From Siphonodentalium dalli (taxonomy: Eukaryota > Mollusca > Scaphopoda > Gadilida > Siphonodentaliidae): a stretch of 64,000 nucleotides of DNA. Positions 12,731-41,800 of this stretch are shown here, piece after piece. Every line of letters begins with the position of its first letter. The first letter of the stretch is position 1. The notes below the pieces were generated by a model. The model was given only the letters and a program-made list of their open reading frames with translations, did no database searches and was not told where the DNA came from. The stretch covers positions 134,791,990 to 134,855,989 of the forward strand of contig CP136067.1 in the NCBI GenBank assembly GCA_032622095.1. Direction: 5' to 3'. The position numbers and the translations under genes are program-made.

Positions 12731-14590
12731 CTGAGCCGTAATTTCGCTAAAATCCGGATTGAGAATCCAAAGCCGATTACGGGGGGCGGAGCTAATTTCG
12801 GATTCTAGGTCAGATTTTGAAATCCACGTGGTCTCCGAAACTCTCTCCCAGCGTCAAACATGGCTCATGTATTTGACACAAATATCATTTGTATCTTATA
12901 TTTATAAAGTGCATGTTTGTTGTGAAAGTCATGATTTTCTTCTATGTGTATATACACGGCACATAATTTGCTGCCAATCCGACTTAATCGCATCTTTTTT
13001 TTCAAGTTAAAGTGTGTTTATTGATGATGGCAAGCATATCTAAACATGACAGCTCTAGGCCTCCTGAATCAAATTCCGAAGATGTAGTGAAGAACACACG
13101 AAACTTGTCAGTTGAACAGGGACGTGACGACAGGGGTTGATTGGGTGTCTCGACCCCCACCCCGAACTTTGGTACAATTTGCTAAGCTGTGCAGTCATTC
13201 ATACGTGAGGAAAATCAGGATTATTTTGACTAACTGTTTCAAATAATGATACGTACTAACCAACATATGCAACAAACAAACCCGATTTTAAATAAATACA
13301 TATACAAACTTATGACTAACTCGGGAGAGGGGGTGTCCAGTGATCTGTATATATGTTCAACTTGTTTTGGTAGTCATGTTGCTTTAAATTGCCATTACTA
13401 ATTATTTATTTTTTCAGTGTAATAACATATGGGAGAGGGGGTACCCTTAAGTGAGTCAGTACTTGTCCCACAATTCCTTTGTATGTATAAACAAATGTAT
13501 GTGTTATATATCATGTGTTATCTAAATTTGACATATATATTTGAAATAAATATATCTAAACTAAACTTTGGTACATTCCAGCAGTCGGAAATTTCATGCA
13601 TGACACAACATTAGTTGGACATTAATTTGACACCATATATAGGTTGGCATTGTTCTCATTGTTTTATTTTTTTCAACCAGTAAAAGTTGGTAATTTTCCA
13701 ATCTTAGTGTTTGTCAGATTGGATATTTCCATGGGGAGCAAATTGAATTCTGCGAACCTGTGAGATTGATGTTTGGCTCAATGGGGGGGGGGGGGGGTGT
13801 GCAGTTGGCCGGAAATTTGAGGAAACTTCTAGCCACGTCCCTAGAACATGTGTCTGTTGTCTATACAGAGACTATTGTGCAAAACGACTGCATTTAACGA
13901 AACAAAACATGTTAAACATGAAATTGCTATAACTTTAAGACTAGATGATAGTACATACGTGTATCTGATAATTCATCGATACCATATAATCCTACTATTT
14001 CTTGAATAAGAAGAAACATTATAATAACACAGCGCAGAAGACATATCCACGAATTCCGTCAATGGTGACGTATCCGCCGAATTCGAAATCGACATGCGTT
14101 CGGGCGGTATTTTAAGGATGGAATTATGAAATGGACATATGAAAGTGACAATCAACAATGATTTGCAATTTCTTCGCCATCAACCGAAGTGCTCCCCCAG
14201 CGTTACTATCAATGGCGTTATTATTTGGCTAATTTCAGTAATATTCTCCCAGTTTACATTCAATAAAACAAATTTGTCTCCGCATTTAAAATTCTTTGAT
14301 ATAGATCGTTTATATTCTGCAATAATTTGTACACAAGAGACGGATTCTTATGTTTTATTGTGTTTTTAAACTCTGAGGTGGCGAAATCTCGGTTTGTTTA
14401 CATTACGAACATTTGAGTCCGTAATCGGAATCCGAATCCCAATCGGATTACCACCAAATTAGGATTACGGTCTGTTCGTTTACTGATTCTGCAAATTTGT
14501 GGTCTGTTCTTTTGCCGAACCAAGTCGTACGGGGACCAATCTGTAATCTGGATCCAGAATCTGAAACGGATTTTAGCGAAATAACGCATC
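12731..14590. mobile_element. About 1.86-kb non-autonomous TIR element, copy A only
   Basis: Copy B runs directly from GGGGCGTAGCC to AGAGGAGACA (33465-33487), while copy A has 1.86 kb between the same flanks. The inserted block starts near CGTAATTTCGCTAAAATCCG (12737) and ends with its near-exact reverse complement at 14586 (19 of 20). Subterminal repeats rich in GGATTCC/GATTACGG lie at 12757-12810 and 14410-14560. No transposase or clean target duplication is visible. It includes a G-tract at 13783-13797. Exact limits are uncertain by a few bases. Confidence 0.75.
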
Positions 14591-15287
14591 AGAGGAGACA
14601 TTCGTGGCATGATACATCCTCTCCAATGAGAATTGCGTGAGTCTTTCAACCGAAATCATGTCCATGTAGTTGTGAACGTTGATCATTATACAACCATGTG
14701 CATACCTGTATTTACTATACAAACTATTGGCTGATAAATTACTACACCAGAACTCACGACTAAATTTTCCATCTGAAATCCCCAAATGTTGTGGAGACAT
14801 TATATATTTTAACTGCTGGCAATTTTTGTCCAGACTATAGCTGAATCTATAGATATAGATTGAATAGGTGCACGCAATTGTATTGATACGTGATTGATAT
14901 ATAGCTATTTTAATAACAAGACAGAGTTATCTGGGGCTCCCGGTGGCTCAGTATGTAAGGATAGGTTTGCATAGCGCATAAGGCTAACATAAGCCGTAGG
15001 GCGATGGCGAAACTGGTTTTACATGCAATCCCAATAAGCAAGAGTGTCGCCCCTAACCCCCAGAATCACGAATACCAGATAAAATGGAGGGCTGAATCCT
15101 GCGTACCAGATAAGATACAATACAATGCAAGTGATAGATATTCCACACAAATATGATCATTTTCACACATTTGCTGATGTAATGGTCAAACTTTCAACAT
15201 AATAAGATGTACGATACTGAATTACATCAAACTATGCCTTTTGGCTAAGAAACAATCAAATGTTGAATACATGGTGCTATAAAAGCT

Positions 15288-17655
15288 GAGCCCTGAATAC
15301 CGGTTAAAATGGACATATGAATCCTGAATACCGGTTAAAATGGGCATATGAATCCTGAATACCGGTTAAAATGGGCATATGAATCCTACGTACCATTTAT
15401 ACAAAAGAGGGTTAGGAATCCTGAATACCGGTTAAAATGGGCATATGAATCCTACGTACCATTTATACAAAAGAGGGGTAGGAATCCTGAAAACCGGTTA
15501 AAATGGGCATATGAATCCTACGTACCATTTATACAAAAGAGGGGTAGGAATCCTGAATACCGGTTAAAATGGGTATATGAATCCTACGTACCATTTATAC
15601 AAAAGAGGGGTAGGAATCCTGAATACCGGTTAAAATGGGCATATGAATCCTACGTACCATTTATACAAAAGAGGGATAGGAATCCTGAATACCGGTTAAA
15701 ATGGGTATATGAATCCTGAATACCGGTTAAAATGGACATATGAATCCTACGTACCATTTATACAAAAGAGGGGCAGGAATCCTGAATACCGGTTAAAATG
15801 GGCATATGAATCCTACGTACCATTTATACAAAAGAGGGTTAGGAATCCTGAATACCGGTTAAAATGGGCATATGAATCCTACGTACCATTTTTACAAAAG
15901 AGGGGTAGGAATCCTGAATACCGGTTAAAATGGGCATATGAATCCTACGTACCATTTTTACAAAAGAGGGGTAGGAATCCTGAATACCGGTTAAAATGGG
16001 CATATGAATCCTACGTACCATTTATACAAAAGAGGGGTAGGAATCCTGAATACCGGTTAAAATGGGCATATGAATCCTACGTACCATTTATACAAAAGAG
16101 GGGTAGGAATCCTGAATACCGGTTAAAATGGGCATATGAATCCTACGTACCATTTATACAAAAGAGGGGTAGGAATCCTGAATACCGGTTAAAATGGGTA
16201 TATGAATCCTGAATACCGGTTAAAATGGACATATGAATCCTACGTACCATTTATACAAAAGAGGGGTAGGAATCCTGAATACCGGCTAAAATGGACATAT
16301 GAATCCTACGTACCATTTTTACAAAAGAGGGGTAGGAATCCTGAATACCGGTTAAAATGGACATATGAATCCTACGTACCATTTATACAAAAGAGGGGTA
16401 GGAATCCTGAATACCGGCTAAAATGGACATATGAATCCTACGTACCATTTTTACAAAAGAGGGGTAGGAATCCTGAATACCGGTTAAAATGGGCATATGA
16501 ATCGTACGTACCATTTATACAAAAGAGGGGTAGGAATCCTGAATACCGGTTAAAATGGGCATATGAATCCTGAATACCGGTTAAAATGGGCATATGAATC
16601 CTACGTACCATTTATACAAAAGAGGGGTAGGAATCCTGAATACCGGTTAAAATGGGTATATGAATCCTACGTACCATTTATACAAAAGAGTGGTAGGAAT
16701 CCTGAATACCGTTTAAAATGGGCATATGAAGCCTGAATACCGGTTAAAATGGGCATATGAATCCTGATTACCGGTTAAAATGGACATATGAATCCTACGT
16801 ACCGTTTATACAAATGAGGGGCAGGAATCCTGAATACCGGTTAAAATGGACATATGAATCCTATGTACCATTTATACAAAAGAGGGGTAGGAATCCTGAA
16901 TACCGATTAAAATGGACATATGAATCCTACGTACCATTTATACAAAAGAGGGGTAGGAATCCTGAATAACGGTTAAAATGGACATATGAATCGTACGTAC
17001 CATTTATACAAAAGAGGGGTAGGAATCCTGAATACCGGTTAAAATGGGCATATGAATCCTGAATACCGGTTAAAATGGGTATATGAATCCTGAATACCGG
17101 TTAAAATGGGCATATGAATCCTGAATACCGGTTAAAATGGGCATATGAATCCTGAATACCGGTTAAAATGGGTATATGAATCCTGAATACCGGTTAAAAT
17201 GGGCATATGAATCCTGAATACCGGTTAAAATGGGCATAATTATGAATCGTACGTACCATTTATACAAAAGAGGGGTAGGAATACTGAATACCGGTTAAAA
17301 TGGGCATACGAATCCTACGTACCATTTATACAAAAGAGGGGTAGGAATCCTGAATACCAGTTAAAATGGGCATATGAATCCTACGTACCATTTATACAAA
17401 AGAGGGTTAGGAATCCTGAATACCGGTTAAAATGGGCATATGAATCCTACGTACCATTATACAAAAGAGGGGTAGAAATCCTGAATACCGGTTAAAATGG
17501 GCATATGAATCCGAGGGGTAGGAATCCTGAATACCGGTTAAAATGGCACATGAATCCCGAGTACCATTTATACAAAAGTGGGGTAGGAATCCTGAATACC
17601 GATTAAAATGAGCATACATGTATATATGAATCCCGAGAATCAGTTAACAGAGGGA
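15288..17655 (+). repeat. 66/31-bp satellite array, copy A (about 2.4 kb)
   Basis: The 66-bp unit is a 31-bp module (GAATACCGGTTAAAATGGGC plus ATATGAATCCT) followed by a 35-bp module (ACGTACCATTTATACAAAAG plus AGGGGTAGGAATCCT). Stretches of pure 31-bp units occur, for example 17025-17230. Units are highly homogeneous, with variants such as TACCGGCTA. The 66-bp form is open as a 22-residue repeat, but every 31-bp unit shifts the frame. The array ends in degenerate units carrying GAATCCCGAG and GAATCCTGCGTACC. Confidence 0.95.
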
Positions 17656-21382: not shown

Positions 21383-21390
21383 GTTCGATC

Positions 21391-25826: not shown

Positions 25827-28760
25827 TTAAAATAGTGGGTGCTTTTGTCGGGTGGCTGGTCCTGTTTTCCGTTTGGAAAATATGTCGGTAAATGATTCTA
25901 TTAAACGCATATGATACCAATCATGCATGAAAACAGCCGCTTGTACTTTGTGGATGTCGTAGATTTTGAGTATATTTTCTTTTTTAAAGAGAGGTTCTGT
26001 GTGGCTTCTATATTTCTTATTACATATAACTCGTATTGCGCGTTTTTGAAGCATGAAAATTTTTTGGACCGCAGGGACGTGTCCCCATATTTGAACAGCG
26101 TAGACTAAATGGCTTTGTATTAGAGCATAATATAATGTTTTAAGTGCGCTACCAGGAAAGAAGTGTTTAACTTTATTGATGTGGTATATGGCATTCACCA
26201 TTTTTGAACAAACAGAGGACACGTGTTTTTTGAAAGTCAGGTTTTCATCTATATGGATTCCTAGGAATTTTGTGGAGGATTCGTGCTCAAGATTTCCTAT
26301 CTTGTTTAGTTCCGTATTATTTAAGTAAACCTTTATAAAGTTCCATTTGTCATCATTGTTCTCTGGGTGTATCAGCATATAGTTGCTTTTTTTAGTATTG
26401 ATCACTAACTTATTGCTACAGCACCAAGCAAATATGTTGCGTAACTCATTATTCACATAACTTTCTACAAGGATGCCATTTTTTCCACCAGTTACTAGAG
26501 TCGTATCGTCCGCGTATGATAAGATATCCATTGTTGTCGAATTTGACATATCGTTAACGTAAATTAAGAAAATTATCGGTCCCAGAATTGATCCCTGGGG
26601 CACTCCACACGTCACTTCCGTCAATTTAGATTTGATACCATTGAGTTCAACATATTGCCTTCTATTTTTCAGGTAGCTCTGAAACCATGAGTATGCTGTG
26701 CCTCGTATACCATAGTGATCTAGTTTATGAAGTAAAATATCGTGATTTATCGTGTCAAATGCTTTTGAGAGGTCGAGAAATAGAGCTAAAGTGGAATCTC
26801 TTGTCATTTTGTCATTATTTGAGACAACTTGATCGAGGAGGTGTAATACAGGATGGAAGGTTGAATGATTAGGGCGGAAGCCGTATTGGTGTTTATAAAG
26901 TATGTTTTGTTCATTTAAGAAGTCTAGTAATCGTTTATGCATTATTTTTTCGAGAAGTTTAGAGATAGCTGGAAGAATGCTGATAGGTCTGTAGTTGGAA
27001 ATTTCATGAGTGGTATTATTTTTTGGGATCGGAACTACTTTAGAAATTTTCATTTTGTCAGGGACTATTCCATGCTCTAAGGACAAGTTAAAAATATGCA
27101 ATAATGCTGGGGCTATTTCCTCAATTGTTTCCTTGATAAGTTTAGTTGATATACCATTGAAATCCCTTGATACTTTCCCTGTCATAGAGAAACGTGTGAG
27201 GATGATTTCCTGCATAGAGGTCGGAATTATTTTGAAATTGATGTCGTCTGGTCTGCGGTTATGGAGAAAATCTGTAAAATGAGAGTCATTTTCATGTTCA
27301 TTGAGTTGGCTAGTTTCCCGCCCAATTTTTGAGAAAAAGTCATTGAACTTTTCCGATATGAGTTTGGAATTTTCAAGTTCTATTCCGTTTTCGGTAAATG
27401 TCTTGGGGTTATTATTTGTGTTTCCATTCATCTTCAATGCACCCTTAAGTATTTCCCATGTTTTCTTTAAGTTATTTTTATTTACTTCTAGAATATTTGT
27501 ATAGTATATATTTTTACTCTTTCTGATTAGTTTATTATATAAGGTACGATAACTCAAATATTTATTTACGTTCGTTTCCGTGGGTTTATTTAATTTGCGT
27601 AGATATAGCTGGTTCTTAACAATACTTGACTTAATCAATCCGGATGTCATCCAAGGATTGCGTTTTATGAATTTTTTGGGTATATGTCGGCTTTTGATAG
27701 GGAAAGCTAGTTCATATGCATTCATATAGATATCTAAGAAGATTTCATATGCTTGGTCGACACTTCTACAAGATGTGACGGAGTCAAAGGTACACGATTT
27801 TAAAAGATTTTTGAATATAATTATGTTATCAGGACTAAAACTTCTTTGATTAGTGGTTGCTTCGTTATTATTGGTGCTGTTTTGTCTCTTTTGGTTAGAT
27901 TCTGAATAAAATATGCCGAAGTGATCGGAAACATCGCATGTGATTATGCCAGATTTACAGTCGCCTTGTAGGTTATTGGTATATATATTATCGATGAGAG
28001 TTGCTGAATGATCAGTCATTCGGGTAGGTTTAGTAATCCTTGGCACGAATCCTCTTGTGAAAATGTTATTTATGAAATCATTCGTTTTTGTATGCGAGTT
28101 GAAATTGAGTAGGTCAATATTAAAGTCTCCTGATATATATGATTTGTGGTTACAAATTTTTTCTAAAATATCGTCGAATTTTTTCAAAAATTGATCAATG
28201 TTGGCCTTTGGTGCGGTATTTGGTCTGTAAACGCAGCCGATTATCCGAGAGTCATTTTTTCCTGGGTTAATTTCCACGAATATTGTTTCTATTACGTGTG
28301 GAATAAATTCACTAAGGTCGGGTCGATTTTTATAGTCAATGGAATCTTTTATGTAAAGGCATACACCACCTCTGCCATCATCGTCGTCAGCTCTGCACTT
28401 GAATTCCATAGGGTGATATCCCGGTATCTGAAAGTGCGATGCTTGTCTTATTTTAAATGTTTCAGTTAAAGCAATAACGTCGAATGAATTATTATTCGAC
28501 TTTAAATCGCATAGGAGATTACACAAAGAATCGAAATTTGCATTGATGCTTCGACAGTTGAGGCTGAATATTGAAAATTTTGTTTTTTTATTTGATTGAT
28601 CTATAGTGTCTGATGGTGAGATGTATCCACATTCATTGCAGGTATTAATAGCAGAATTTAAATTATCGTCATTTTCCTGTTCCGCTTCGTTCCATTTCAT
28701 TGTAAAGTTATATTCATCAGAATCCCGAACCTCACTCAAATTTACGTTAGGTGTAGCCAT
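25827..28760 (-). CDS. LINE ORF: AP endonuclease plus reverse transcriptase
   Basis: An intact 977-residue polyprotein. An N-terminal CNECG motif (41-45) is followed by an apurinic-like endonuclease: SLNCRSIN (66-73), LTETF (98-102), SGDFN (210-214), SDH (278-280). The reverse transcriptase has NYRPISIL (589-596), YGFRPNHST (626-634), LDLSKAFD (662-669), GVPQGS (719-724) and the catalytic YADD (749-752). There is no RNase H domain. It nicks target DNA and copies its own RNA by target-primed reverse transcription. Domain order and absence of RNase H place it in the jockey/CR1/L2 group; the exact clade needs a tree. The absence of stops and its presence in only one copy mean recent activity. 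It starts at ATG 28760. Confidence 0.95.
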   Translation of the reverse strand: MATPNVNLSEVRDSDEYNFTMKWNEAEQENDDNLNSAINTCNECGYISPSDTIDQSNKKTKFSIFSLNCRSINANFDSLCNLLCDLKSNNNSFDVIALTETFKIRQASHFQIPGYHPMEFKCRADDDDGRGGVCLYIKDSIDYKNRPDLSEFIPHVIETIFVEINPGKNDSRIIGCVYRPNTAPKANIDQFLKKFDDILEKICNHKSYISGDFNIDLLNFNSHTKTNDFINNIFTRGFVPRITKPTRMTDHSATLIDNIYTNNLQGDCKSGIITCDVSDHFGIFYSESNQKRQNSTNNNEATTNQRSFSPDNIIIFKNLLKSCTFDSVTSCRSVDQAYEIFLDIYMNAYELAFPIKSRHIPKKFIKRNPWMTSGLIKSSIVKNQLYLRKLNKPTETNVNKYLSYRTLYNKLIRKSKNIYYTNILEVNKNNLKKTWEILKGALKMNGNTNNNPKTFTENGIELENSKLISEKFNDFFSKIGRETSQLNEHENDSHFTDFLHNRRPDDINFKIIPTSMQEIILTRFSMTGKVSRDFNGISTKLIKETIEEIAPALLHIFNLSLEHGIVPDKMKISKVVPIPKNNTTHEISNYRPISILPAISKLLEKIMHKRLLDFLNEQNILYKHQYGFRPNHSTFHPVLHLLDQVVSNNDKMTRDSTLALFLDLSKAFDTINHDILLHKLDHYGIRGTAYSWFQSYLKNRRQYVELNGIKSKLTEVTCGVPQGSILGPIIFLIYVNDMSNSTTMDILSYADDTTLVTGGKNGILVESYVNNELRNIFAWCCSNKLVINTKKSNYMLIHPENNDDKWNFIKVYLNNTELNKIGNLEHESSTKFLGIHIDENLTFKKHVSSVCSKMVNAIYHINKVKHFFPGSALKTLYYALIQSHLVYAVQIWGHVPAVQKIFMLQKRAIRVICNKKYRSHTEPLFKKENILKIYDIHKVQAAVFMHDWYHMRLIESFTDIFSKRKTGPATRQKHPLF

Positions 28761-29331
28761 GAGTTCCTATCATGGAATGAATGAAATGTATGCCCTCCGC
28801 TTCAGAATGAATTAAAGATGTAAGCATGAATATGTATAGTCCGTGCATTGTTACTAGAGCTAACCGTAATATGAAATACATATTATTTTAATAATGTTTT
28901 GTATTCGGCGGGTATGTGTTTCTGGTAAGTCCTCGAATGCGTGTCAATCGACGGTCAATGAACATTTCAAATTCCGCTTGTTATTTTCTCATGAAAGTAT
29001 TGCCAAAAATCGCATATCTGTGATTTGACGTGTAGGCTATCTAATTGACCCACAACGAGGACTTACGTCATAGTTGAAATAGATAACTCCATAATATATA
29101 TGTAGGTATATAGACCTATGTGGCTAAATGTATGAGTGTATGCCAATAGTATGTTGAAAATACATGAACAAGAACCTATAATTAATAAAACTTTGAAGAT
29201 TCAAAAATGATTGCATATACGTGTATAAATGGTACACCGACTTCTGGTTGTATTTGACAAAGTATAATTTGTTTTTAAAAGAAATCTACTGGACACAAAG
29301 TCCCAAACACAAGGCCTCATCGAGCCTACAA

Positions 29332-29942: not shown

Positions 29943-30889
29943 GATTCGACCATCGTCCATCTTGTACACATGTCCTGGCCATCTGAGTCGGAGTTGGATA
30001 GATTAGTCCATCGTCCATGTTATATATAAGCTCTAGCCATATGATTCGGCGTTTGGTGGATGCGACCATCGTCCATGTTGTATACATGTCCTGGCCAACT
30101 GAGTCGGAGTTGGATAGATTAGTCCGTCGTCCATGTTGTATATAAGCCCTAGCCATATGATTCGGCGTTTGGTGGATGCGACCATCGTCCGTGTTGTATA
30201 CATGCACGCCGTTGGATAGATTTGACAATCATCCATGCTGTACACATGTCCTGGCCACCTGAGTCGGCGTTGGATGGGTTCGACCATTGTCCTTGTTGTA
30301 CACACGCCCTAGCCATCTGAGTCAGCGTTGGATATATTCGACCATTGTCGTTGTTGTACACACCCACTAGCCATCTGAGTCAGCGTTGGATAGATTGACC
30401 ATTGTTCGTGTTGTAAACACGACCTAGCCATCTGAGTCGGCGTTGGATATATTTTACTATCGTCCATGTTGTACACATGTCCTGGCCATATGCGTCGGCG
30501 TTGGATGGATTCGACCATCATCTATGTTGTATACACGCCCAAGCCATCTGAGTGAGCGTTGGATAGATTCGACCATTGTCCGTGTTGTACACACGCCCTA
30601 GCCACCTGAGTCAGCGTTGGATAAATTCGACCATTGTCCGTGTTGTACACACGACCTAGTCATCTGAGTCGGCGTTGGATAGATTCGACCATCGTTCATT
30701 CTATACACATGCCCTAGTCATCTGAGTCGACGTTGGATGGAATCGACCATCGTCCATGTTGTACACACGCCCTGGCCAGCTGAGTCGGCGTTGGATAGAT
30801 TCGACCATCGTTCATTCTGTACACATGTCCTAGCCATCTGAGTCGGCGTTAGATATATTTGTCATCGTCCATGTTGGCGTTGGATGTGT
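29943..30889. repeat. 58-bp minisatellite, copy B (about 16 units)
   Basis: Same array as at 9140-10145 and in the same unit order, but about one unit shorter (the loss is near 30340). Copy-number change after the duplication is therefore small here, unlike the 66/31-bp satellite. Confidence 0.92.
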
Positions 30890-32912
30890 ATGCAGAACAA
30901 GCTACGTGTCGGTGCCTGCTTGTTGCAGCACCTCGGTGTTGGAATTTTGTCCTGCCATTTTATTCCTAGCGCATGTCAGTATACGAGTATGATTAAACAG
31001 TCACCAATAGCGTACACCATATGCATTGCGTACTGTCGCCTGTTTCCGTTTGCGGGGAGGCTTCGCAAGAGGTTTCACTTCTAATCACACGTATCAATAG
31101 AGTCCATGGCCACCGTGATCTGCGAGGGTCTCGTTTCTCTTCCAGCTGATGGGTTTCCACAGTCACAAATGTGAGTTTAAGCATACATGTACACGAGATT
31201 AGTGGTTTCCCAGAAAGATTCAAGAATCAATTGAATCTTTCGAACACCATTAACACATATTAACACAAAGTGATACATGTGTCTCATGGTTTTTCATCAG
31301 AGTTGTGTTCAGCTATATTGATCCATACAAGCGTTCAAAACAGTAAGATTACCGATGTTATTACCCCCAAACAACAAAATACACAAACAGGAGAAGCATC
31401 TGGTGTTACTCATATTTTATTTGAACGTGTTTTAATAACTAGATTTCAATAACATTTATTACATGATCTTACCATTATTCCATTCAATAAACCATTCTAT
31501 AAATTGTGATGTGCAACGATCGTTGCATAACAGGAAATAGTGCCAAGTTTACCAAAATGAATGTATTATTGTTCCGCAAACGTGACCTTTGTCTTCCGGT
31601 TTGTCGTCTGTTTATGCTATGTCTCAAAATAATATGGGTCCAATAATCTTCCAACAAACTCTGATGAATGAAGAGTTTGAAAAGTTATTAAATTTTCATT
31701 AAATTTACGCCATTACATACGTTCAAGAGTCTTTATTTATCTGGGACTATTTCTTTACGCGGACAGACAACGCAAAGTTACGTGAAACGTCACCTCACCC
31801 TTCATAGAAGCCAGAAAACTCGTCCAGTAAATTAGGTCTGGACCTCGTCACATATTGCAGCTGAAAAATGCATTGTTCTGAAAATATTAATGGTACACAA
31901 TCCGATTCGATGGTGCCCATATCATCAGATTCCAACAACTTCAACATTTCATGAAATTCCGCTTCAGCTATCAAAAATCTATTAATTGCCAAAACAAAAC
32001 AATAATGCTAACCACTGTGAACTATAGTATAAAATTGCCCAAAAAGTGTTATATAGATCAACATTTTGTTCAACGCAATTTGGTATCGAGAGTATGTCGG
32101 TCGACGGTCGTCGTAATTTTTCCAGGCCGCCAAATATTCGAGGTGGTGAAAATAACAGAATTAATAACTCGAAATATGATAACTCTGGGCTTTGATGGGT
32201 GGGTTCCTCGACTCAAATATAATGTGTTTTACCCCCCGAAACGAAGAAATAGTAACAAAGGGATAAATCGGATTATGCATATTTAACATATTTCTTGTCT
32301 CAGTTCGTGGGAAGTAGTTCGCAATTACATAATATCTTGTTGACTGATTTCTGGCACACAATTGTTTTATACACCCGAAGCAGCAAAACAGTTCCAGGAA
32401 GAGATATAACACCATTAACCCCTTCTTTACTGAAAACTCATTGGTGAGTAGTCGTCCTAGAAAATGTTCATATAATAAGTTCAACAAACAGCCATATTTG
32501 CTGAACGTATTACCTGAACATTTCCCTCCAACAACTTGGACTCCTTCTGCACTTTTAATATCTGTCGTCTGCTTATTTTTCCTGAAAATTCATTCATATT
32601 AGATGAGCAATATACCATTCAAATGTAGGCGTTTGTAACTGGGTGGGAGAATCCATTTAATATAGAAAGGGTGAACGTAACTATATACAAGATAATAATT
32701 ATACGTAACTAAAATCTCACCTCTGGACAAAAATTTAATGAGATCATATCAAAGACACGGTACGCTAGTTTGGTCGCTTCCTTGTTGAATTCTCTGAAAG
32801 TCTCCTCGAATTTCTCAGCTTCGTGCGGCCAAGTCTGCGAAAAGTTTAAAATAATACGTTTTCAGTCCAGCTGTCCTAAATCCTGATCAAAATCAAATGG
32901 TAAAGATACAAG

Positions 32913-32991
32913 AGCGTAGAGTCGTCACATCATTTTAGTTAGTAATCTTTTTAAACAGATTACTAACTAAAATGATGTGGCGCTCTACGCT
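32913..32991 (+). other. Perfect-stem hairpin, 79 nt (copy B)
   Basis: Identical hairpin to 12164-12242, including bulge and loop, while flanking sequence shows several differences between the copies. Confidence 0.5.
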
Positions 32992-33580
32992 TCCGTACAA
33001 ATACCCATGCAAGTGTCGTTTAATATTGAGAGAAATTATGTGTAATGTGAATATAAAAGCAACCTATATAAGGGCAATAAAACAATAACAAGTTTTCAAC
33101 GTTGGAACAATAAATATTACACCCCTCTCGATATATGATGAATCCCTACTCTACTAGAAAGCTCCAAAACAGTCCCCTCGCTACGCTATGTCTGAGCTCT
33201 GCCGGCGTGTTTACTTTCTTTATTAAATCTAACATTTTTTTGTTGAAGTGTTTTGTCAGTTACAATTCATTCTGGCTTGATCTAGACAATTTTCAAATGA
33301 ATATAGACAGTTCAGTTTCTCAGAATAATGCAGAATGAACTGTAACCTACAATCTTCTCAAATAAATAAATGAGTGATTTCTTCACATTAAGTGCAGGTG
33401 CTGACAGCGGTAAGTCATGCGTAACAGGGGACTGAACTGTGCATGGAGCTTGCTCTTTTGGCTACGGGGCGTAGCCAGAGGAGACATTCGTGGCATGATA
33501 CATCCTCTCCAATGAGAATTGCGTGAGTCTTTCAACCGAAATCATGTCCATGTAGTTGTGAACGTTGATCATTATACAAC

Positions 33581-33853
33581 AGTAGTATTGTCTACCCTTT
33601 CGGGTAGATGGTTTGATCATGATTTGCTCCCCTCCTGTTCCTGTGCCATCAGGGGATTATAGGTCACGCCGCGTGGGTGTATATATCGGTGAAGGTTATC
33701 GCCATAATAATCGTGGCGGGTACCACTAGGTCAAGGACGAACAAAATATTTCCGCAACAAGTGAGCGACGGTTATCACGAGAATAACGCGTGATCGGGGG
33801 ACCAGTACGTGTAGGTTATATATATCTATTCGGCCAAGGTTATCACCATAATA
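33581..33853 (+). repeat. Left terminal inverted repeat of the Polinton-like element
   Basis: 273 bases, matching the reverse complement of 38010-38282 with about two or three substitutions. The first 28 bases include a small self-complementary stretch (GTCTACCCTTTCGGGTAGA) that can fold into a terminal hairpin. It carries three copies of the GGTTATCNC motif. Confidence 0.95.
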
Positions 33854-34080
33854 CGTCTAGGTCCCGGGCAAACAAATCGGCGAAGGTTATCACGAGAATA
33901 GCGCGTGATCACGGGTGTATATATCTAGGTCACGGGTAAACGATATATTCCGTAACAAATCGGCGAAGGTTATCACGACATTAGCGCGTGAACGGGGGGC
34001 GTATGCGTCTAAGTTATAGGCAAACAACAATTTTCGCAACAACTCGGTCAAGGTTATCACGAGAATAACGCGTGATCGAC
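33690..34080 (+). promoter_or_regulatory. Iterated GGTTATCACGAGAATAACGCGTGATC motif
   Basis: Copies start near 33694, 33770, 33838, 33885, 33969 and 34052, with irregular 47-84-base spacing, partly inside the TIR and partly in the leader of the first gene. The full form contains the inverted pair ATCACG/CGTGAT. Such clustered palindromic repeats next to the terminus could bind a replication or transcription protein of the element. This is inferred from layout only. Confidence 0.55.
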
Positions 34081-34159
34081 AAACAGCACTTCAGTTACAA
34101 CAACTCGGTTAATGAGATAAGCACGCCGCAACAAGGTCACACACTACAGTAACACGTCT

Positions 34160-34167
34160 TATATAAA
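34160..34167 (+). promoter_or_regulatory. TATA box before the first Polinton-like gene
   Basis: TATATAAA, 88 bases before the ATG at 34256, directly after the iterated repeats. A transcript from here could also carry the kinase gene, whose start follows the first ORF by only 18 bases. Confidence 0.5.
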
Positions 34168-34255
34168 TCCCCCCCAGCATCAAAAGTAGTACAGCTAACA
34201 ACGTATTATCATAGCGGCTATCATCACAAAGGGGAAGATATTATATAGAAGATAA

Positions 34256-34660
34256 ATGAAAGCCGTTCGAGTAACCGAATTATTAGCCGATATCGCTGAT
34301 AAAAAGATCCCTATGCTATATATTGGTACTATAAAAGGAAAATATAACGCGGTTATATTACGAGCATATATAATAGATCAAAGAATAAAGAATAATACCA
34401 AGAAAGCAAAGGCCAACACTCTATATCGACCGGCTATTCTGCGTCAAAAAAGAAAAACCGCGGTATCAACCCAGCAATATAGCGTACTATCAAAAGTATC
34501 AAGGAGGCGCAAACAAATTATTCAACCCAGAACAGACATATATCCGGAAAAAGAACCTATAATGGATAATATAGCATCACCGGAGGACCAACCAGATCTA
34601 TACTGGGACGTTATACCGGATATAGATACAAAATTACCTTTTACCGAAATTTTTATATGA
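34256..34660 (+). CDS. Basic protein of unknown function (Polinton-like element)
   Basis: 134 residues starting at the first ATG after the TATA box. The N-terminal third (MKAVRVTELLADI) is mixed helical. The middle (about 45-92) is strongly basic with clusters KNNTKKAK, RQKRK and SRRRK, and the C-terminal 40 residues are acidic. No known domain is recognised. A basic core with an acidic tail would fit a DNA-binding protein, which is only a guess. It is followed after 18 bases by the kinase gene in the same orientation, and the pair may share a transcript. Codons continue uninterrupted, so the gene is probably intact. Confidence 0.7.
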   Translation: MKAVRVTELLADIADKKIPMLYIGTIKGKYNAVILRAYIIDQRIKNNTKKAKANTLYRPAILRQKRKTAVSTQQYSVLSKVSRRRKQIIQPRTDIYPEKEPIMDNIASPEDQPDLYWDVIPDIDTKLPFTEIFI

Positions 34661-34678
34661 TTCTAGGAGGGAAACAAA

Positions 34679-35341
34679 ATGGAAGGAAGTAAATACACAG
34701 TGTGCGTAGAAGGCAATATAGGGGCGGGAAAAACGACTTTCCTTAGTTATTTTCAAGAGGATCCGCGAGTGAGTATAAACGCGGAACCTGTTGAACGATG
34801 GAGGAATATAGGAGGCGTCAACGCTTTGGAATTAATGTATACGAACGCAAAAAGGTGGGCAATGACGTTTCAATCCTACGTTCAATTGACGTCTACCGAA
34901 CGCCACAAACAAGAAACTACCGAGCCGATAAAAATTATGGAAAGGTCACTATACAGCGGACATTATATATTTACAGAAAATATGTTTCGAAGCGGCAACC
35001 TGACCGAAATAGAATATAATATTTTGACGGAATGGTTCGTGTCCCTTTTGGAAAACTCGTATATAAAAGCCGACCTTATTATATATTTACGAACAAAACC
35101 GCAAGTTGTCGCTGACAGGATTAAAACACGAGCCAGAAAGGAGGAAGAGACGATAAATTTGGAATATATTCAATCGCTTCACCAATTGCACGAGGAATGG
35201 CTTATAAAACAAACAAAGTTTTTAGTACCGGCTCCCGTTATCATACTCGATGGTAACGTAAATGCGGCAGAGATGAAAAATATTATCCGACGTAATATAG
35301 ACAGAATTTTATGCGGGTATTCCGAAACCTCGCAAAAATAA
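34679..35341 (+). CDS. Deoxynucleoside kinase (dNK/TK2-dCK family)
   Basis: 220 residues, about the length of a complete viral-type enzyme. The P-loop is GNIGAGKT (12-19). EPVERW (36-41) supplies the catalytic Glu and the substrate-site Trp region, FQSYVQL (64-70) the base-binding Gln, and ERSLYS (88-93) the conserved ERS motif. The LID RIKTRARKEEE (147-157) precedes the LEYI..LH..HEEWL helix. The family transfers phosphate from ATP to deoxynucleosides, so it would raise dNTP supply for element replication. All key residues are present, so it is probably active. The start is the ATG after GGAGGGAAACAAA. Origin from an animal host dNK or another DNA virus is undecided. Confidence 0.93.
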   Translation: MEGSKYTVCVEGNIGAGKTTFLSYFQEDPRVSINAEPVERWRNIGGVNALELMYTNAKRWAMTFQSYVQLTSTERHKQETTEPIKIMERSLYSGHYIFTENMFRSGNLTEIEYNILTEWFVSLLENSYIKADLIIYLRTKPQVVADRIKTRARKEEETINLEYIQSLHQLHEEWLIKQTKFLVPAPVIILDGNVNAAEMKNIIRRNIDRILCGYSETSQK

Positions 35342-35399
35342 ATACTTATAAGAAAATGCGAGGGCAGTACACCCGTCAGTTCCCTAATCACTTCGTGCC

Positions 35400-35660
35400 A
35401 TGGATGACGTTGACACCATAGAGAGAGCGACGTCCAACAGGTCGACTAAATGGGATTGGATGGGTAGAGAAATTTCTCGAGCGCAAATTGTATATTTCTG
35501 CCAGGTAACCGTTATTATGATAGTGATCGTCGTAAGCTTGGTAAATCTAAGTGCAGGAATAAATCAGACGGCGTTCTGGACGAGATTAGTAAGCGGATGC
35601 CTGGGTTATATGCTACCGGCCCCGTCTATACAACGCACCGTCGACGTACAACCTAATTAG
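35400..35660 (+). CDS. Small membrane protein (Polinton-like element)
   Basis: 86 residues: a polar N-terminus with WDWMGREISRAQ (18-29), a strong transmembrane helix at about 30-51 (VYFCQVTVIMIVIVVSLVNL), a short loop and a second hydrophobic stretch ending CLGYMLPAP (67-75). The pattern REI..., one long helix, SLVNLS, then LGYxLP resembles small uncharacterised proteins I associate with Polinton-like elements of invertebrates. That is from memory and not verified. There are 58 bases between the kinase stop and this ATG. Role unknown; virion or host-membrane protein are both possible. Confidence 0.7.
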   Translation: MDDVDTIERATSNRSTKWDWMGREISRAQIVYFCQVTVIMIVIVVSLVNLSAGINQTAFWTRLVSGCLGYMLPAPSIQRTVDVQPN

Positions 35661-35745
35661 GAAGTTCTATATATAACATACCCGCTATAACGCTGAGCGG
35701 GAGGTAATCTGGATAAAAACCGGTTCGAGCCAGTTCAGCTACCGG

Positions 35746-35753
35746 TATATAAA
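35746..35753 (+). promoter_or_regulatory. TATA box before the PC4-like gene
   Basis: TATATAAA, 46 bases before the ATG at 35799, in the 138-base gap after the membrane-protein gene. It suggests a separate transcript for the PC4-like protein. Confidence 0.5.
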
Positions 35754-35798
35754 GGAAGAACGTTTAGTATATTCTGTTATTTTATCCAGGGAACAAAA

Positions 35799-36554
35799 AT
35801 GTTTTACCTCGGTAGAGATATTTACGCAGACGTGTCGTCCTACGAGGGTATAGTGAATGTACATCTAAGGAAATATTATTCGCAAGATGGAACACTTAAA
35901 CCTTCTAAAACCGGGATCAGTCTGCATATCGGAGAATACGAAATTCTTAAAGCGAACTTAGCCGTTATTGAATACGAAATTCACAGTCGTATTCAAGGAA
36001 TAGACGGGACGGAAACGGATATGATTTATTTAGGAAGGGACAGATATATCAACGTTTGTATTTACGCGGGATGTACCCTAATACATATCCGCAAGTTTTA
36101 TCGAAACGACGGAAATCTCAACCCGTCATCGTACGGAATCACTCTCAAAACTAAAGAATTGGACGAATTGAAGAAGAATATGCAGAATATAGATCAAAGT
36201 ATAAAGGAACAGGAAGAGCTATTAACACCCGTTCCGGCCACACACTGTGACGATCTACGTGGAATGTTAATTACCATTTACGCCGAACTGGTTCGAAAGC
36301 AATTACGCGTTGAAGTGGAAAAAACTTGTTACGGCTGTATAAATAACAGACCCAGCCAAAACGATCACGACGTGTGTTTACAGCCGAACCAAATGTGGCC
36401 GGAGTTATTCGCTATCGCTTTCAATAGAACCGATGAAAGCGAGTTATTTCGTGTGTTTAAAGACGAAGCCAAAAACATTGAAAGGACGGTGACGTACGAA
36501 CAATTTCAAAATATCGTTATCACCGATTCTGATATTCGAAAAGAAGTACTCTGA
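35799..36554 (+). CDS. Protein with two PC4-like domains and a Cys/His cluster
   Basis: 251 residues. Residues 3-60 and 76-133 are copies of one module (YLGRDIYADV...HLRKYYSQDG; YLGRDRYINV...HIRKFYRNDG), each continuing with a PS..GI.L segment and a helix. This matches the C-terminal ssDNA-binding domain of transcription coactivator PC4/p15 (basic strand, KPGxxGIxL turn, helix). The C-terminal part has CYGC...H..C (C177, C180, H190, C193) with RPSQNDH, possibly a zinc site. PC4 domains act as dimers, so a tandem pair could form an intramolecular dimer. Role: ssDNA binding in replication or transcription of the element. The ATG follows CCAGGGAACAAAA. Confidence 0.8.
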   Translation: MFYLGRDIYADVSSYEGIVNVHLRKYYSQDGTLKPSKTGISLHIGEYEILKANLAVIEYEIHSRIQGIDGTETDMIYLGRDRYINVCIYAGCTLIHIRKFYRNDGNLNPSSYGITLKTKELDELKKNMQNIDQSIKEQEELLTPVPATHCDDLRGMLITIYAELVRKQLRVEVEKTCYGCINNRPSQNDHDVCLQPNQMWPELFAIAFNRTDESELFRVFKDEAKNIERTVTYEQFQNIVITDSDIRKEVL

Positions 36555-37957
36555 TGTTTATGAACACGTATCCCGAACACTGAACTAGGGGCTATCGGAT
36601 ATGTACAACAAAAAAAAAACAAACAAAAAAACAGAATATGCATATGCTCGCCGATAGCGTCGAAGGGAATATCGGTGTTGCAGAAAATCGGGGACATTTC
36701 AGCGAAATATTCGCGAGGATCATCGTTCTTTCCGAACAGCGCGAAGTTCGCTTCGTTTTCACGCGCGGCACGAAAGGCCAATTGCCTGGCGATTCCGGGT
36801 ACTGATATAGCGGTTTTGAAGACGTCGATATTTTGATCGAAATAAAAAGTTTGCAAACGTTCGACCGCAGTCACGAAGGGTTTGACGTCTCTGTTGTTGT
36901 ACCATACCAGAAAGTCTTTAAAGGTCGACATGCCTTCAGTTTCCCACACGAGCTGACAGTAAGCGTAGTCGGCTTCGCTGATATTTGATTTTGACATCGA
37001 GTTGTAGAAGGCTTCGTGAGGCGGTAGTCGCTTCGCATTCAACTTGTCGATATCGTCAAAAAAGTCGTAGGGAAAGAAGCCTTTCGTTTCTTTGACGTCG
37101 TACGCCTTGAGGAATTTCACGTAAGACGAACCCGGCGACAGGTAATAAGATATATCGAGGAATTTGAGTCGCTTAGAAGCTATACACATGTACGAGTTGT
37201 TCTTCTTGACCACGAAAACTCGCTCCTCATCGTGTAAGTTCAAATATCTGGCTAGGCAAATCTTAATCAAATTCAAGTCATAGTTTGATGAGTTAAATCC
37301 CAAGACGGGGACTTGAGACATATATTGAGAGAATTTGCCGAGTAAACTACTTAAGGTTGTGTGCTTCTTCCTCTTCTTCTTACCGCCGTCTTCGTCATCA
37401 TCATCATCCTCATCATCATCATCATTATCATCATCATCATCATCATCATCATTCTCAGCCTTCATTTTCTCGTTAATTTCTTGCACCACCCAACCCCATT
37501 TATCCTCCGCCAACTCAGAGACGGTCGCGTATATCTCGTACATAGAAGCCACCATACATTCCACAAGAGTATTAGTGTCGGGTTCCACTATACAGAAAGG
37601 TTCGGTATGTCCTTCGATATTACTGCAGATAGATACGCTTACGGGTACGTGTTTCTGAATCCATTCCAGATTCTGACCGGGCTTGTCATTGTCCACCTTT
37701 TGAAGCAGCGACTCGTAATCGAAACAAATAAACCACGGATATATTCGCTCGTTCTTCGGTACGTGTATGCCTTGTTGTTCCAACTGGACGAAGATGCTTT
37801 CGAAATCCTTGTAAAAACCACCGGGATATACGAACTCCGTCTGGTTGACGCAAATTACTTGGTGTCGTCGTAAGTCACGAGCTTTCGGAAAGTGGCGATC
37901 GCAGTTCACGCATTGGTACTTGCTCGCATATTGAGGGAAATTCTTTATATACATCAT
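36506..37957 (-). pseudogene. Protein-primed family B DNA polymerase, exonuclease half only
   Basis: 483 codons from ATG 37957. An N-terminal finger (C16, C19, H32, C36) and YPGGFY (44-49) precede the 3'-5' exonuclease: Exo I FDYE (79-82) and Exo II FNSSNYD (221-227). They are followed by the KGFFPYDFF, LPP..AFY and NNRDVKPF landmarks (293-361) and SVPGIA (385-390). This order is typical of Polinton-type pPolB. Homology ends about residue 436; the last 47 codons are unrelated, and polymerase motifs A, B and C are absent. An Asp-rich run (168-190) from a GAT-type triplet repeat splits Exo I and II. Exonuclease activity might persist, but polymerisation cannot. Its 3' end overlaps the PC4-like gene by 49 bases. 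Confidence 0.88.
36585..36660. other. Probable internal deletion junction of the Polinton-like element
   Basis: Polymerase homology breaks off here next to an A-rich tract (36609-36631), and GGCTATCGG and CCGATAGC lie inverted on either side. Everything between the polymerase palm and the other genes of a full element is missing. The point fits an end-joining scar. It also lies between convergent 3' ends, so it may serve both as transcript end region. Confidence 0.45.
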
Positions 37958-38009
37958 GTGATTTTCGTGAATATTGACGTATAGGGTTATACGCGCGTCG
38001 TTTATGCGC

Positions 38010-38282
38010 TATTATGGTGATAACCTTGGCCGAATAGATATATATAACCTACACGTACTGGTCCCCCGACCACGCGTTATTCTCGTAATAACCGTCGCTC
38101 ACTTGTTGCGGAAATATTTTGTTCGTCCTTGACCTAGTGGTACCCGCCACGATTATTATGGCGATAACCTTCACCGATATATACACCCACGCGGCGTGAC
38201 CTATAATCCCCTGATGGCACAGGAACAGGAGGGGAGCAAATCATGATCAAACCATCTACCCGAAAGGGTAGACAATACTACT
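38010..38282 (-). repeat. Right terminal inverted repeat of the Polinton-like element
   Basis: Reverse complement of 33581-33853. Homology stops sharply at TATTATGG (38010). High identity between the two TIRs implies a young insertion or a recent replication event. Confidence 0.95.
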
Positions 38283-38879
38283 TACAACCATGTGCATACC
38301 AGTCTTTACTATACAAACTATTGGCTGATAAATTACTACACCAGAACTCACGACTAAATTTCCCATCTGAAATCCCCAAATGTTGTGGAGACATTATATA
38401 TTTTAACTGCTGGCAATTTTTGTCCAGACTATAGCTGAATCTATAGATATAGATTGAATAGGTGCACGCAATTGTACTGATACGTGATTGATATATAGCT
38501 ATTTTAATAACAAGACAGAGTTATCTGGGGCTCCTGGTGGCTCAGCATGTAAGGATAGGTTTGCATAGCGCATAAGGCTAACATAAGCCGTAGGGCGATG
38601 GCGAAACTGGTTTTACATGCAATCCCAATAAGCGAGAGTGTCGCCCCTAACCCCCAGAATCACGAATACCAGATAAAATGGAGGGCTGAATCCTGCGTAC
38701 CAGATAAGATACAATACAATGCAAGTGATAGATATTCCACACAAATATGATCATTTTCACACATTTGCTGATGTAATGGTCAAACTTTCAACTTAATAAG
38801 AGGTACGATACTGAATTACATCAAACTATGCCTTTTGGCTAAGAAACAATCAAATGTTGAATACATGGTGCTATAAAAG

Positions 38880-41800
38880 CTGAGTCCTGAATACCGGTTA
38901 AAATGGACATATGAATCCTGAATACCGGTTAAAATGGGCATATGAATCCTGAATACCGGTTAAAATGGGCATATGAATCCTACGTACCATTTATACAAGA
39001 GGGTTAGGAATCCTGTATACCGGTTAAAATGGGCATATGAATCCTACGTACCATTTATACAAAAGAGGGATATAGGAATCCTGAATACCGGTTAAAATGG
39101 GCATATGAATCCTACGTACCATTTATACAAAAGAGGGGTAGGAATCCTGAATACCGGTTAAAATGGGTATATGAATCCTACGTACCATTTATACAAAAGA
39201 GGGGTAGGAATCCTGAATACCGGTTAAAATGGGCATATGAATCCTACGTACCATTTATACATAAGAGGGGTAGGAATCCTGAATACCGGTTAAAATGGGT
39301 ATATGAATCCTGAATACCGGTTAAAATGGACATATGAATCCTACGTACCATTTATACAAAAGAGGGGTAGGAATCCTGAATACCGGTTAAAATGGGCATA
39401 TGAATCCTGAATACCGGTTAAAATGGACATATATGAATCCTACGTACCATTTATACAAAAGAGGGTTAGGAATCCTGAATAGCGGTTAAAATGGGCATAT
39501 GAATCCTACGTACCATTTATACAAAAGAGGGGTAGGAATCCTGAATAGCGGTTAAAATGGGCATATGAATCCTACGTACCATTTATACAAAAGAGGGGTA
39601 GGAATCCTGAATACCGGTTAAAATGGGTATATGAATCCTACGTACCATTTATACAAAAGAGGGGTAGGAATCCTGAATACCGGTTAAAATGGGCACATGA
39701 ATCCTGAATACCGGTTAAAATGGGCATATGAATCCTACGTACCATTTATACAAAAGAGGGGTAGGAATCCTGAATAGCGGTTAAAATGGGCATATGAATC
39801 CTACGTACCATTTATACAAAAGAGGGGTAGGAATCCTGAATACCGGTTAAAATGGGTATATGAATCCTACGTACCATTTATACAAAAGAGGGGTAGGAAT
39901 CCTGAATACCGGTTAAAATGGGCATATGAATCCTGAATACCGGTTAAAATGGGCATATGAATCCTACGTACCATTTATACAAAAGAGGGGTAGGAATCCT
40001 GAATACCGGTTAAAATGGGCATATGAATCCTACGTACCATTTATACAAAAGAGGGGTATGAATCCTGAAAACCGGTTAAAATGTGCATATGAATCCTACG
40101 TACCAATTATACAAAAGAGGGGTAGGAATCCTGAATACCGGTTAAAATGGGTATATGATTCCTACGTACCATTTATATAAAAGAGGGGTAGGAATCCTGA
40201 ATACCGGTTAAAATGGGCATATGAATCCTACGTACCATTTATACAAAAGAGGGATAGGAATCGTGAATACCGGTTAAAATGGGCATATGAATCCTACGTA
40301 CCATTTATACAAAAGAGGGGTAGGAATCCTGAATACCGGTTAAAATGGGAATATGAATCCTGAGTACCGGTTAAAATGGACATATGAATCCTACGTACCA
40401 TATATACAAAAGAGGGGTAGGAATCCTGAATACCGGTTAAAATGGGCATATGAATCCTGAATACCTGTTAAAATGGACATATGAATCCTACGTACCATTT
40501 ATACAAAAGAGGGGTAGGAATCCTGAATACCGGTTAAAATGGGCATATGAATCCTACGTACCATTTATACAAAAGAGGGGTGGGAATCCTGAATACCGGT
40601 TAAAATGGGCATATGAATCCTACGTACCATTTATACAAAAGAGGGGTAGAAATCCTGAAAACCGGTTAAAATGGGCATATGAATCCTACGTACCATTTAT
40701 ACAAAAGAGGGGTAGGAATCCTGAATACCGGTTAAAATGTGTATATGAATCCTACGTACCATTTATACAAAAGAGGGTTAGGAATCCTGAATACCGGTTA
40801 AAATGGGCATATGAATCCTACGTACCATTTATACAAAAGAGGGGTAGGAATCCTGAATACCGGTTAAAATGGGTATATGAATCCTGAATACCGGTTAAAA
40901 TGGACATATGAATCGTACGTACCATTTATACAAAAGAGGGGTAGGAATCCTGAATACCGGTTAAAATGGGCATATGAATCCTACGTACCATTTATACAAA
41001 AGAGGGGTAGGAATCCTGAATACCGGTTAAAATGGGTATATGAATCCTACGTATCATTTATACAAAAGAGGGGTAGGAATCCTGAATACCGGTTAAAATG
41101 GGCATATGAATCCTACGTACTATTTATACAAAAGAGGGGTAGGAATCCTGAATACCGGTTAAAATGGGCATATGAATCCTACGTACCATTTATACAAAAG
41201 AGGGGTAGGAATCCTGAATACCGGTTAAAATGGGCATATGAATCCTGAATACCGGTTAAAATGGACATATGAATCCTACGTACCATTTATACAAAAGAGG
41301 GGTAGGAATCCTGAATACCGGTTAAAATGGGTATATGAATCCTGAATACCGGTTAAAATGGACATATGAATCCTACGTACCATTTATACAAAAGAGGGGT
41401 AGGAATCCTGAATACCGGTTAAAATGGGCATATGAATCCTGAATTCCGGTTAAAATGGACATATGAATCCTACGTACCATTTATACAAAAGAGGGGTAGG
41501 AATTCTGAATACCGGTTAAAATGGGCATATGAATCCTGAATACCGGTAAAAATGGACATATGAATCCTGATTACCGGTTAAAATGGACATATGAATCCTA
41601 CGTACCGTTTATACAAAAGAGGGGCAGGAATCCTGAATACCGGTTAAAATGGACATATGAATCCTATGTACCATTTATACAAAAGAGGGGTAGGAATCCT
41701 GAATAACGGTTAAAATGGACATATGAATCGTACGTACCATTTATACAAAAGAGGGGTAGGAATCCAGAATACCGGTTAAAATGGACATATGAATCGTACG

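What the first reader, a model, noticed from the sequence alone, without database searches (positions are those of the whole stretch)
33581..38282. A complete-looking 4.7-kb 'mini-Polinton' with exact ends and an empty site 19 kb away
The sequence shows 273-bp TIRs starting AG, a 6-bp TSD (TACAAC) and the unoccupied target at 14689-14694. Known Polintons are 15-20 kb; here only five ORFs remain and no integrase, capsid, ATPase or protease is seen. The near-identical TIRs suggest recent movement, so it may be a non-autonomous lineage mobilised by a full-length relative, analogous to a satellite of a virus-like transposon.
Basis: partly seen in the sequence, partly recalled or inferred. Interest (0 to 1): 0.88.

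Follow-up and report, generated by a model that had tools for sequence, protein, structure and literature searches.

The report
Stripped-down, defective Polinton copy
A 4.7-kb insertion is a one-off, gutted copy of a 16-kb virus-like transposon (Polinton) found in the same genome, where many other shortened copies turn out to be mirror-image palindromes resembling the defective genomes of viruses.

Summary
In detail: 273-bp terminal inverted repeats (TIRs, 2 mismatches), AGTAGT/ACTACT ends, TACAAC target-site duplication (TSD), and an empty site in duplicated flanks. Four ORFs are intact (134 aa, deoxynucleoside kinase, 86 aa, double PC4); the fifth is a polymerase remnant.

The element is a ~16-kb Polinton of the same genome minus three internal blocks (about 6.6, 0.76, 4.1 kb). 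Each junction was found only in this copy (40 places scored each): a private deletion, not an amplified 4.7-kb lineage.

The family matters more. Of 40 elements with both ends recognised, 36 have perfect 6-bp TSDs and 22 appear palindromic, inverted matches lying 1 kb or more from both ends.

Most likely mechanism (inferred): faulty replication of linear Polinton DNA made deletion and snap-back genomes, like defective viral genomes, inserted by integrase supplied in trans. My searches of an open-licence library found no report of this for Polintons.

The parts
33575..33580 (.). left target-site duplication TACAAC
33581..33853 (+). left TIR, starts AGTAGT
   Evidence: 273 nt, 99% complementary to 38010-38282
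33871..34078 (+). subterminal repeats (GGTTATCACGAGAATA-type units)
   Evidence: families D3, D4
34256..34660 (+). intact ORF of 134 aa (g1), no Pfam match; also at the left end of a full-length copy
34679..35341 (+). intact deoxynucleoside kinase, 220 aa
   Evidence: PF01712 E 7e-54
35400..35660 (+). intact ORF of 86 aa, membrane-like by sight, no Pfam match
35799..36554 (+). intact ORF of 251 aa with two PC4 domains
   Evidence: PF02229 E 1.4e-22, 2 stretches
36633..36638 (.). junction 1: left block (to 36619 by the reference copy, to 36632 by copy C1:161611258) meets a polymerase remnant; about 6.6 kb missing (ATPase, integrase, capsid-like and protease-like ORFs, C-terminal part of the polymerase)
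36639..36721 (-). 83-bp polymerase remnant
   Evidence: 100% to L020 6448-6366
36722..37988 (-). polymerase N-terminal remnant (weak C2H2 match E 0.0027, below cut-off; acidic stretch); junction 2 at 36721/36722 (762 bp missing)
37988..37990 (.). junction 3: polymerase remnant meets the right end; about 4.1 kb missing
38010..38282 (-). right TIR, ends ACTACT
38283..38288 (.). right target-site duplication TACAAC
14590..15814 (+). paralogous empty site, single TACAAC at 14689-14694

Best explanation
The 4.7-kb element is a defective copy of a 16-kb Polinton that still exists in full-length form in the same genome. SHOWN: it corresponds to positions 1-3065, about 9647-9729, 10492-11743 and about 15857-16149 of the full-length copy C2:9270987-9287135, so three internal blocks are missing and both ends are intact; it sits at a site with a 6-bp duplication that is empty in a paralogous copy; its junctions were found nowhere else. 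SHOWN for the family: shortened copies are deletion derivatives or inverted-arm palindromes, most with perfect TSDs, and a palindromic lineage is inserted at many sites. INFERRED: the shortened genomes arose while linear Polinton DNA was being copied from its ends (polymerase jumps give deletions; copying back on the displaced or own strand gives palindromes), as in defective genomes of linear viruses, and integrase from full-length relatives inserted them because only the ends are needed. For the 4.7-kb copy itself, deletion before integration is likelier than three later deletions, but is not proved.
For: Block map against the two separate pieces of a full-length copy and junction alignments. 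Private junctions: the own copy alone spans the join among 40 scored places in each. TSDs: 36 of 40 pairs perfect (21 of 23, 15 of 17). 22 of 40 pairs palindromic: 14 by direct arm comparison, 6 by 150-bp samples at 1 kb, 2 by symmetric inverted core hits; in the sample test 7 of 7 non-palindromic controls were negative and 2 of 2 palindromic controls positive. Copy-back geometry, e.g. C7_12517851 = 16149->11000 | 12405->16149 and C4_258044278 = 16149->8145 | 8331->16149. No TIR in the centre of C4_258044278, so it is not two elements back to back. Arms (windows of up to 1.5 kb) more alike to each other than to the best other held element in 14 of 16 palindromes, 1 tie, 1 opposite. Of 100 listed ends 80 pair within 26 kb, so shortening often spares both ends.
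Against: Internal deletion after insertion would also leave TIRs and TSD, and no sibling with the same junctions shows that the 4.7-kb form ever moved. No helper dependence, free linear DNA or particle was observed, and no full-length copy with a closely matching TIR was seen (at most 93% in those scored). The polymerase matches a DNA polymerase profile only weakly (PHROG 1907 E 1.7e-6; no Pfam polymerase match), and protein priming is known for Polintons in the literature, not tested here. One of the 22 palindromes (C7_175722155) has inverted flanks, the mark of an assembly fold-back or a larger duplication. C7_192572174's left arm is closer to another element (99.25%) than to its own right arm (98.4%), and in three more the margin is under 0.5%. 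The pairing method sees only elements with both ends recognisable. Of the 18 pairs called non-palindromic, 7 were judged without comparing arms and 2 only at 1 kb.
Confidence: 0.66

Rival explanations
1. A full-length Polinton inserted at TACAAC and then lost three internal stretches by ordinary chromosomal deletion; no short molecule ever existed.
For: Junctions are private and nearly blunt; chromosomal deletions leave TIR and TSD untouched.
Against: Three deletions in a young copy (2 mismatches in 273 bp between TIRs; intact ORFs) that all spare both ends; many other shortened copies also keep both ends; the palindromic lineage shows that rearranged forms do integrate.
Confidence: 0.28
2. 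A non-autonomous 4.7-kb lineage amplified by a full-length Polinton.
For: Ends, TSD and intact left gene block might suffice for movement in trans; a palindromic lineage with the same ends did spread to many sites.
Against: No other copy spans any of the three junctions among 40 scored places each; a sibling would be expected to score highest.
Confidence: 0.04
3. The palindromes (not the 4.7-kb copy) are assembly fold-backs or products of conversion between the two TIRs after insertion.
For: C7_175722155 has inverted flanks. Strand invasion from one TIR could duplicate one end in place.
Against: In 36 of 40 pairs the flanks carry a direct 6-bp TSD, whereas a fold-back would mirror them. The same palindromic core sits at several sites with different TSDs, so the palindromic form itself moved.
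Confidence: 0.1

Closest known systems
Polinton/Maverick (self-synthesising, virus-like DNA transposon)
   Same: 6-bp TSD; (AGT)2//(ACT)2 ends and TIRs of hundreds of bp, as reported for vertebrate Mavericks (PMC8097293, passages seen); full-length relatives carry an rve+chromo integrase and, weakly supported, an A32-like ATPase
   Different: This copy is 4.7 kb, lacks the integrase, ATPase, capsid-like and protease-like ORFs and has only polymerase scraps; relatives have inverted arms of up to 6.7 kb unbroken (7.6 kb with one interruption) against 46-1,447 bp TIRs in intact vertebrate Mavericks (PMC8097293)
Defective viral genomes of linear DNA viruses, deletion and snap-back types (adenovirus; recalled, no paper read)
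   Same: Internal deletions or inverted duplication of one end; both termini kept; full-length relatives in the same genome
   Different: Seen here as germline insertions with TSDs; dependence and interference untested
Non-autonomous DNA transposons (MITE-like, long-TIR or foldback elements; recalled)
   Same: Shared ends with an autonomous relative, internal loss
   Different: The 4.7-kb form was found once; the relatives that spread are palindromes, 12 of 15 of them 12-14 kb, not short uniform elements

Membership tests
Polinton/Maverick, autonomous | 6-bp TSD and AGT-type ends with TIRs | tested here: met
   end motif from PMC8097293
Polinton/Maverick, autonomous | retroviral-type integrase with chromodomain | tested here: not met
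   absent from this element; present in full-length relative L037 (rve 8e-10, Chromo 7.3e-8)
[quoted passage not shown]
   only two remnants here; in the full-length copy L038 the gene is in two frames with a weak DNA polymerase match, PHROG 1907 E 1.7e-6; priming mode not tested
Polinton/Maverick, autonomous | capsid proteins, ATPase, protease | tested here: not met
   their stretches are missing from the element; in relatives the ATPase is weakly supported (Pox_A32 5.6e-4, below cut-off; PHROG ATPase 0.0018), and MCP, minor capsid and protease are named by recalled resemblance and gene order only (no significant Pfam match)
Amplifying non-autonomous lineage (4.7-kb type) | several copies with the same junctions and different TSDs | tested here: not met
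   own copy only, of 40 scored each
Amplifying non-autonomous lineage (palindromic type) | several copies with shared structure and different TSDs | tested here: met
   core itself in 10 palindromic pairs of the 40 (8, 2); 5 more match lineage members in 150-bp samples; perfect TSD in 14 of these 15, 13 different
Defective (deletion or snap-back) genome | derived from a full-length genome, both termini kept | tested here: met
Defective (deletion or snap-back) genome | replicated and inserted with helper proteins, interferes with helper | not testable with these tools
   needs expression or free-DNA data

The most novel reading that the evidence does not exclude
Polintons in this eukaryotic genome produce defective genomes of the two classical viral kinds, deletion and copy-back palindrome, and one palindromic type has become a satellite lineage that outnumbers the full-length elements (15 against 7 of the 40 pairs examined) by using their ends and machinery; the genome is thus a fossil record of extrachromosomal, end-initiated Polinton replication.
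Probability: 0.5. Interest if true: 0.82.

Novelty: new variant of a known kind. Interest (0 to 1): 0.6.

Why it matters
Whether Polintons replicate as free, virus-like linear genomes is an open question; a 2021 study of vertebrate Mavericks says that their particles had not been observed (PMC8097293, abstract in a search listing). Copy-back palindromes inserted with clean target-site duplications are what end-initiated replication of a linear genome would leave behind, and they can be counted and dated in genome assemblies. A palindromic satellite lineage would show that Polintons, like viruses, carry parasites made from their own replication errors. The 4.7-kb element is one instance of the simpler, deletion kind.

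Tried and rejected
Rejected: (1) chance TACAAC 'empty site': the flanks match over 105 bp and 1.1 kb. (2) A copy-back of its own left end as the source of the right end of the 4.7-kb element: the 20 bp at 37990-38009 are not next to its left TIR but stand next to the TIR in other copies, at right ends and also at some left ends; a plain deletion suffices, copy-back from another molecule is not excluded. (3) Two back-to-back Polintons as the source of the C4_258044278 palindrome: no TIR at its centre. (4) A related virus in IMG/VR by the capsid-like ORF: 2 pattern matches, none confirmed.

Led nowhere: the capsid-like ORF gave nothing in Pfam or convincing in PHROGs; the 313-, 145- and 121-aa ORFs of the palindromic lineage gave nothing convincing in Pfam or against the 11 Polinton proteins (best: 121-aa ORF with PC4, E 0.43); the two polymerase frames of L038 gave no polymerase in the PDB (best for the 909-aa frame a Vsr endonuclease, E 0.009). 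The interior of C8_17191949 could not be read. The host was not identified. Seven pairs called non-palindromic were judged only from one-sided gene and polymerase hits in capped lists. In the arm test I used 16 of the 17 palindromes; C2_62752091, with interrupted arms, was left out, as was the palindrome C8_23972115 (L013, L014), which is not among the 40 pairs.

Papers: listings only; passages of PMC8097293 and PMC6431247. 'Polinton' with 'palindrom' gave 44 papers, 20 listed, none by title on this subject; 'Polinton' with 'defective interfering' gave 1, with one occurrence of each; six phrases for non-autonomous Polintons or Mavericks gave 0; inverted-repeat terms gave 16, 15 listed. Adenovirus defective genomes are recalled.
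Full report
OBSERVATION. The element runs from 33581 to 38282 (4,702 bp). Its 273-bp TIRs differ at 2 positions, it is flanked by TACAAC on both sides, and the window carries a duplication of the flanks without the insert: the last 105 bp of the left flank equal 14590-14694, and the right flank resumes at 14689 at 98.2-98.3% over 1.1 kb. The insertion is therefore, by inference, younger than that duplication.

CONTENT. Four ORFs are open throughout: 134 aa (no Pfam match), deoxynucleoside kinase (PF01712, 7e-54), 86 aa (no match) and a 251-aa protein with two PC4 domains (PF02229, 1.4e-22). The minus-strand ORF 36506-37957 is a remnant of the polymerase gene of full-length relatives. Against full-length copies the intact ORFs differ at few sites (against L037: dNK 7 in synonymous and 4 in non-synonymous codons, PC4 4 and 4, g1 2 and 7), too few to test selection.

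GENOME CONTEXT. The window lies in a 2.23-Gb, 9-contig genome whose species is not told. The TIR has many relatives (63 matches from 40 scored of 417 candidates); the closest are in shortened copies (98-99%), while the TIRs of the large non-palindromic copies scored there are 90-91% like it, 93% in one (C4:211714346). The terminal 28-mer has 106 sites at <=2 mismatches, 0 for the reversed control. Of the 100 listed, 80 form 40 plus/minus pairs under 26 kb, spanning 4.6 to 20.6 kb. Seven are full-length by size (15.6-16.1 kb) and by gene and polymerase hits or block map. The full-length copy C2:9270987-9287135 carries, from the left: g1, dNK, PC4, ATPase, integrase with chromodomain, a 107-aa ORF, capsid-like ORFs, and on the other strand the polymerase in two frames; a protease-like ORF was seen in C3:291706983-291721959, in the stretch where I cut the first copy. 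Names of capsid and protease ORFs are recalled resemblance. The polymerase has a weak PHROG DNA polymerase match (1.7e-6) and an endonuclease stretch (PHROG 13076, 5.3e-7; Vsr in the PDB, E 0.009).

ANATOMY. Against that copy the 4.7-kb element consists of positions 1-3065, about 9647-9729, 10492-11743 and about 15857-16149. Lost are ATPase, integrase, capsid-like and protease-like ORFs, the polymerase parts with the endonuclease stretch and the PHROG-matching region, and most of the right end. The joins are blunt or nearly so, apart from a few bases at junction 1 that neither side explains. Queries across each join find the whole join only in this copy, of 40 scored places each. It is a private deletion derivative.

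PALINDROMES. I compared the two ends of 23 of the 40 pairs directly, plus three further elements. Fourteen of those 23 have inverted arms of about 1.6 kb or more (95-100% identical; C2_62752091 with interruptions). The longest unbroken arms are 6.7 kb (C2_82578537); C4_258044278 reaches 7.6 kb with one interruption. Nine of the 23 do not, among them C7_64617413, with no inverted repeat of 120 bp or more. Of 8 further pairs tested with 150-bp samples at 1 kb from each end, 6 match and 2 do not (C8_17191949, C8_119700695); 7 of 7 non-palindromic controls fail and 2 of 2 palindromic controls pass. Two more (C6_98224247, C7_175722155) carry inverted core hits at equal distances from their ends. 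Seven were called non-palindromic from one-sided gene and polymerase hits without comparing arms. Total 22 of 40. TSDs are perfect in 21 of 23 and 15 of 17, 36 of 40; two of these (C3_268912574, C3_270082738) share TSD and flanks and are taken as one event duplicated. The exceptions are C3_291706983 (in a simple repeat), C3_12973795 and C8_17191949 (one base each), and C7_175722155, whose flanks are inverted copies of each other.

TYPES. Deletion type: this element, C8_108382563 (1-7279 | 14967-16149), C1_105198214 (331-2303 | 11854-16149, its first 113 bp unmatched). Copy-back type made of this Polinton: C7_12517851, C7_192572174, C1_25661230, C3_196333395, C6_131391695, C4_258044278, C1_95875406, and with short arms C3_268912574/C3_270082738; C4_43287006 has right-end sequence in both samples (89%). 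Several need more than one switch. Lineage type: 15 palindromic pairs of the 40. Eight share a core seen directly, two by core hits, and five match lineage members in their 150-bp samples. None of the 11 Polinton protein queries matches the core; matches in this group were to g1 and dNK in the arms of C8_29479583 and to g1 in those of C1_130559184. One non-palindromic pair, C7_64617413, also holds the core. In the genome the core has 1,035 first-look candidates, of which 40 were scored, all at 97% or more; 26 of these 40 places form 13 inverted pairs about 5 kb apart. I did not see the ends of most of these, so how many use these TIRs is open. Two small palindromes (C3_12973795, C6_192195265) belong to a more distant subfamily, the latter with an ATPase-like ORF.

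MECHANISM. In 14 of 16 palindromes the two arms resemble each other more than any other held element, with 1 tie and 1 reversal (only held elements and windows of up to 1.5 kb compared). This fits arms copied from one template. With direct TSDs, assembly fold-back cannot explain most cases. The lineage type shows that palindromic molecules integrate as such. The simplest account is faulty copying of linear DNA from its ends before integration, with integrase supplied in trans. Established knowledge: Polintons encode a protein-primed polymerase and a retroviral-like integrase (PMC6431247, passages). Everything about replication here is inference from end products.

COMPARISON. Intact vertebrate Mavericks have TIRs of 46-1,447 bp, mean 402, sizes 12.7-24.6 kb and 6-bp TSDs, with (AGT)2//(ACT)2 among the end motifs (PMC8097293, passages). 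The 4.7-kb copy keeps the ends and fails every coding criterion tested, so it is a defective derivative of a Polinton, not an autonomous one. It resembles deletion-type defective viral genomes; whether it ever replicated as such is not shown. In the held open-licence library I found no account of palindromic or defective-interfering-like Polintons (listings only); subscription papers are not covered.

Noticed in passing
C8:17191949-17206671 (L053, L054, L069, L070): 14.7-kb element, not palindromic at 1 kb: one end resembles the palindromic lineage (90-92%), the other has a broken dNK-like stretch; possible parent of that lineage.
   Followed up: partly
C7:175722155-175734789 (L079, L080): Palindromic element whose flanks are inverted copies of each other: assembly fold-back or a larger inverted duplication.
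   Followed up: no
C6:192195265-192201162 (L031): 5.9-kb palindrome with a zinc-finger/ATPase-like ORF (Adeno_IVa2 6.9e-5, Pox_A32 1.7e-4) in the arms, open in one arm and broken in the other; another Polinton-like subfamily.
   Followed up: partly
L026 975-1913 (minus) and other members of the palindromic lineage: 313-aa ORF with repeated DLEAWG-like segments, no convincing family match; a weak trace (58% over 31 aa, E 7.8e-4) lies in the end region of L017.
   Followed up: partly
C3:268912574-268918718 and C3:270082738-270088772: Two 6-kb defective copies 1.2 Mb apart with the same TSD and near-identical 30-bp flanks: probably a duplication of the host segment, not two insertions.
   Followed up: partly
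window 7372-50804: Duplicated blocks (for example 9199-12735 with 29943-33480, 14689-15814 with 38283-39408, 20709-23760 with 47785-50804) around large arrays repeating at about 66 bp (spacing of matches).
   Followed up: partly
window 25827-28766 (minus): 979-aa open frame that looks like a non-LTR retrotransposon endonuclease/reverse transcriptase (by sight, untested).
   Followed up: no
window 22308-23783 and 49517-52279 (minus): Two related long ORFs resembling hAT-like transposase-derived proteins (by sight, untested), near the duplicated blocks.
   Followed up: no
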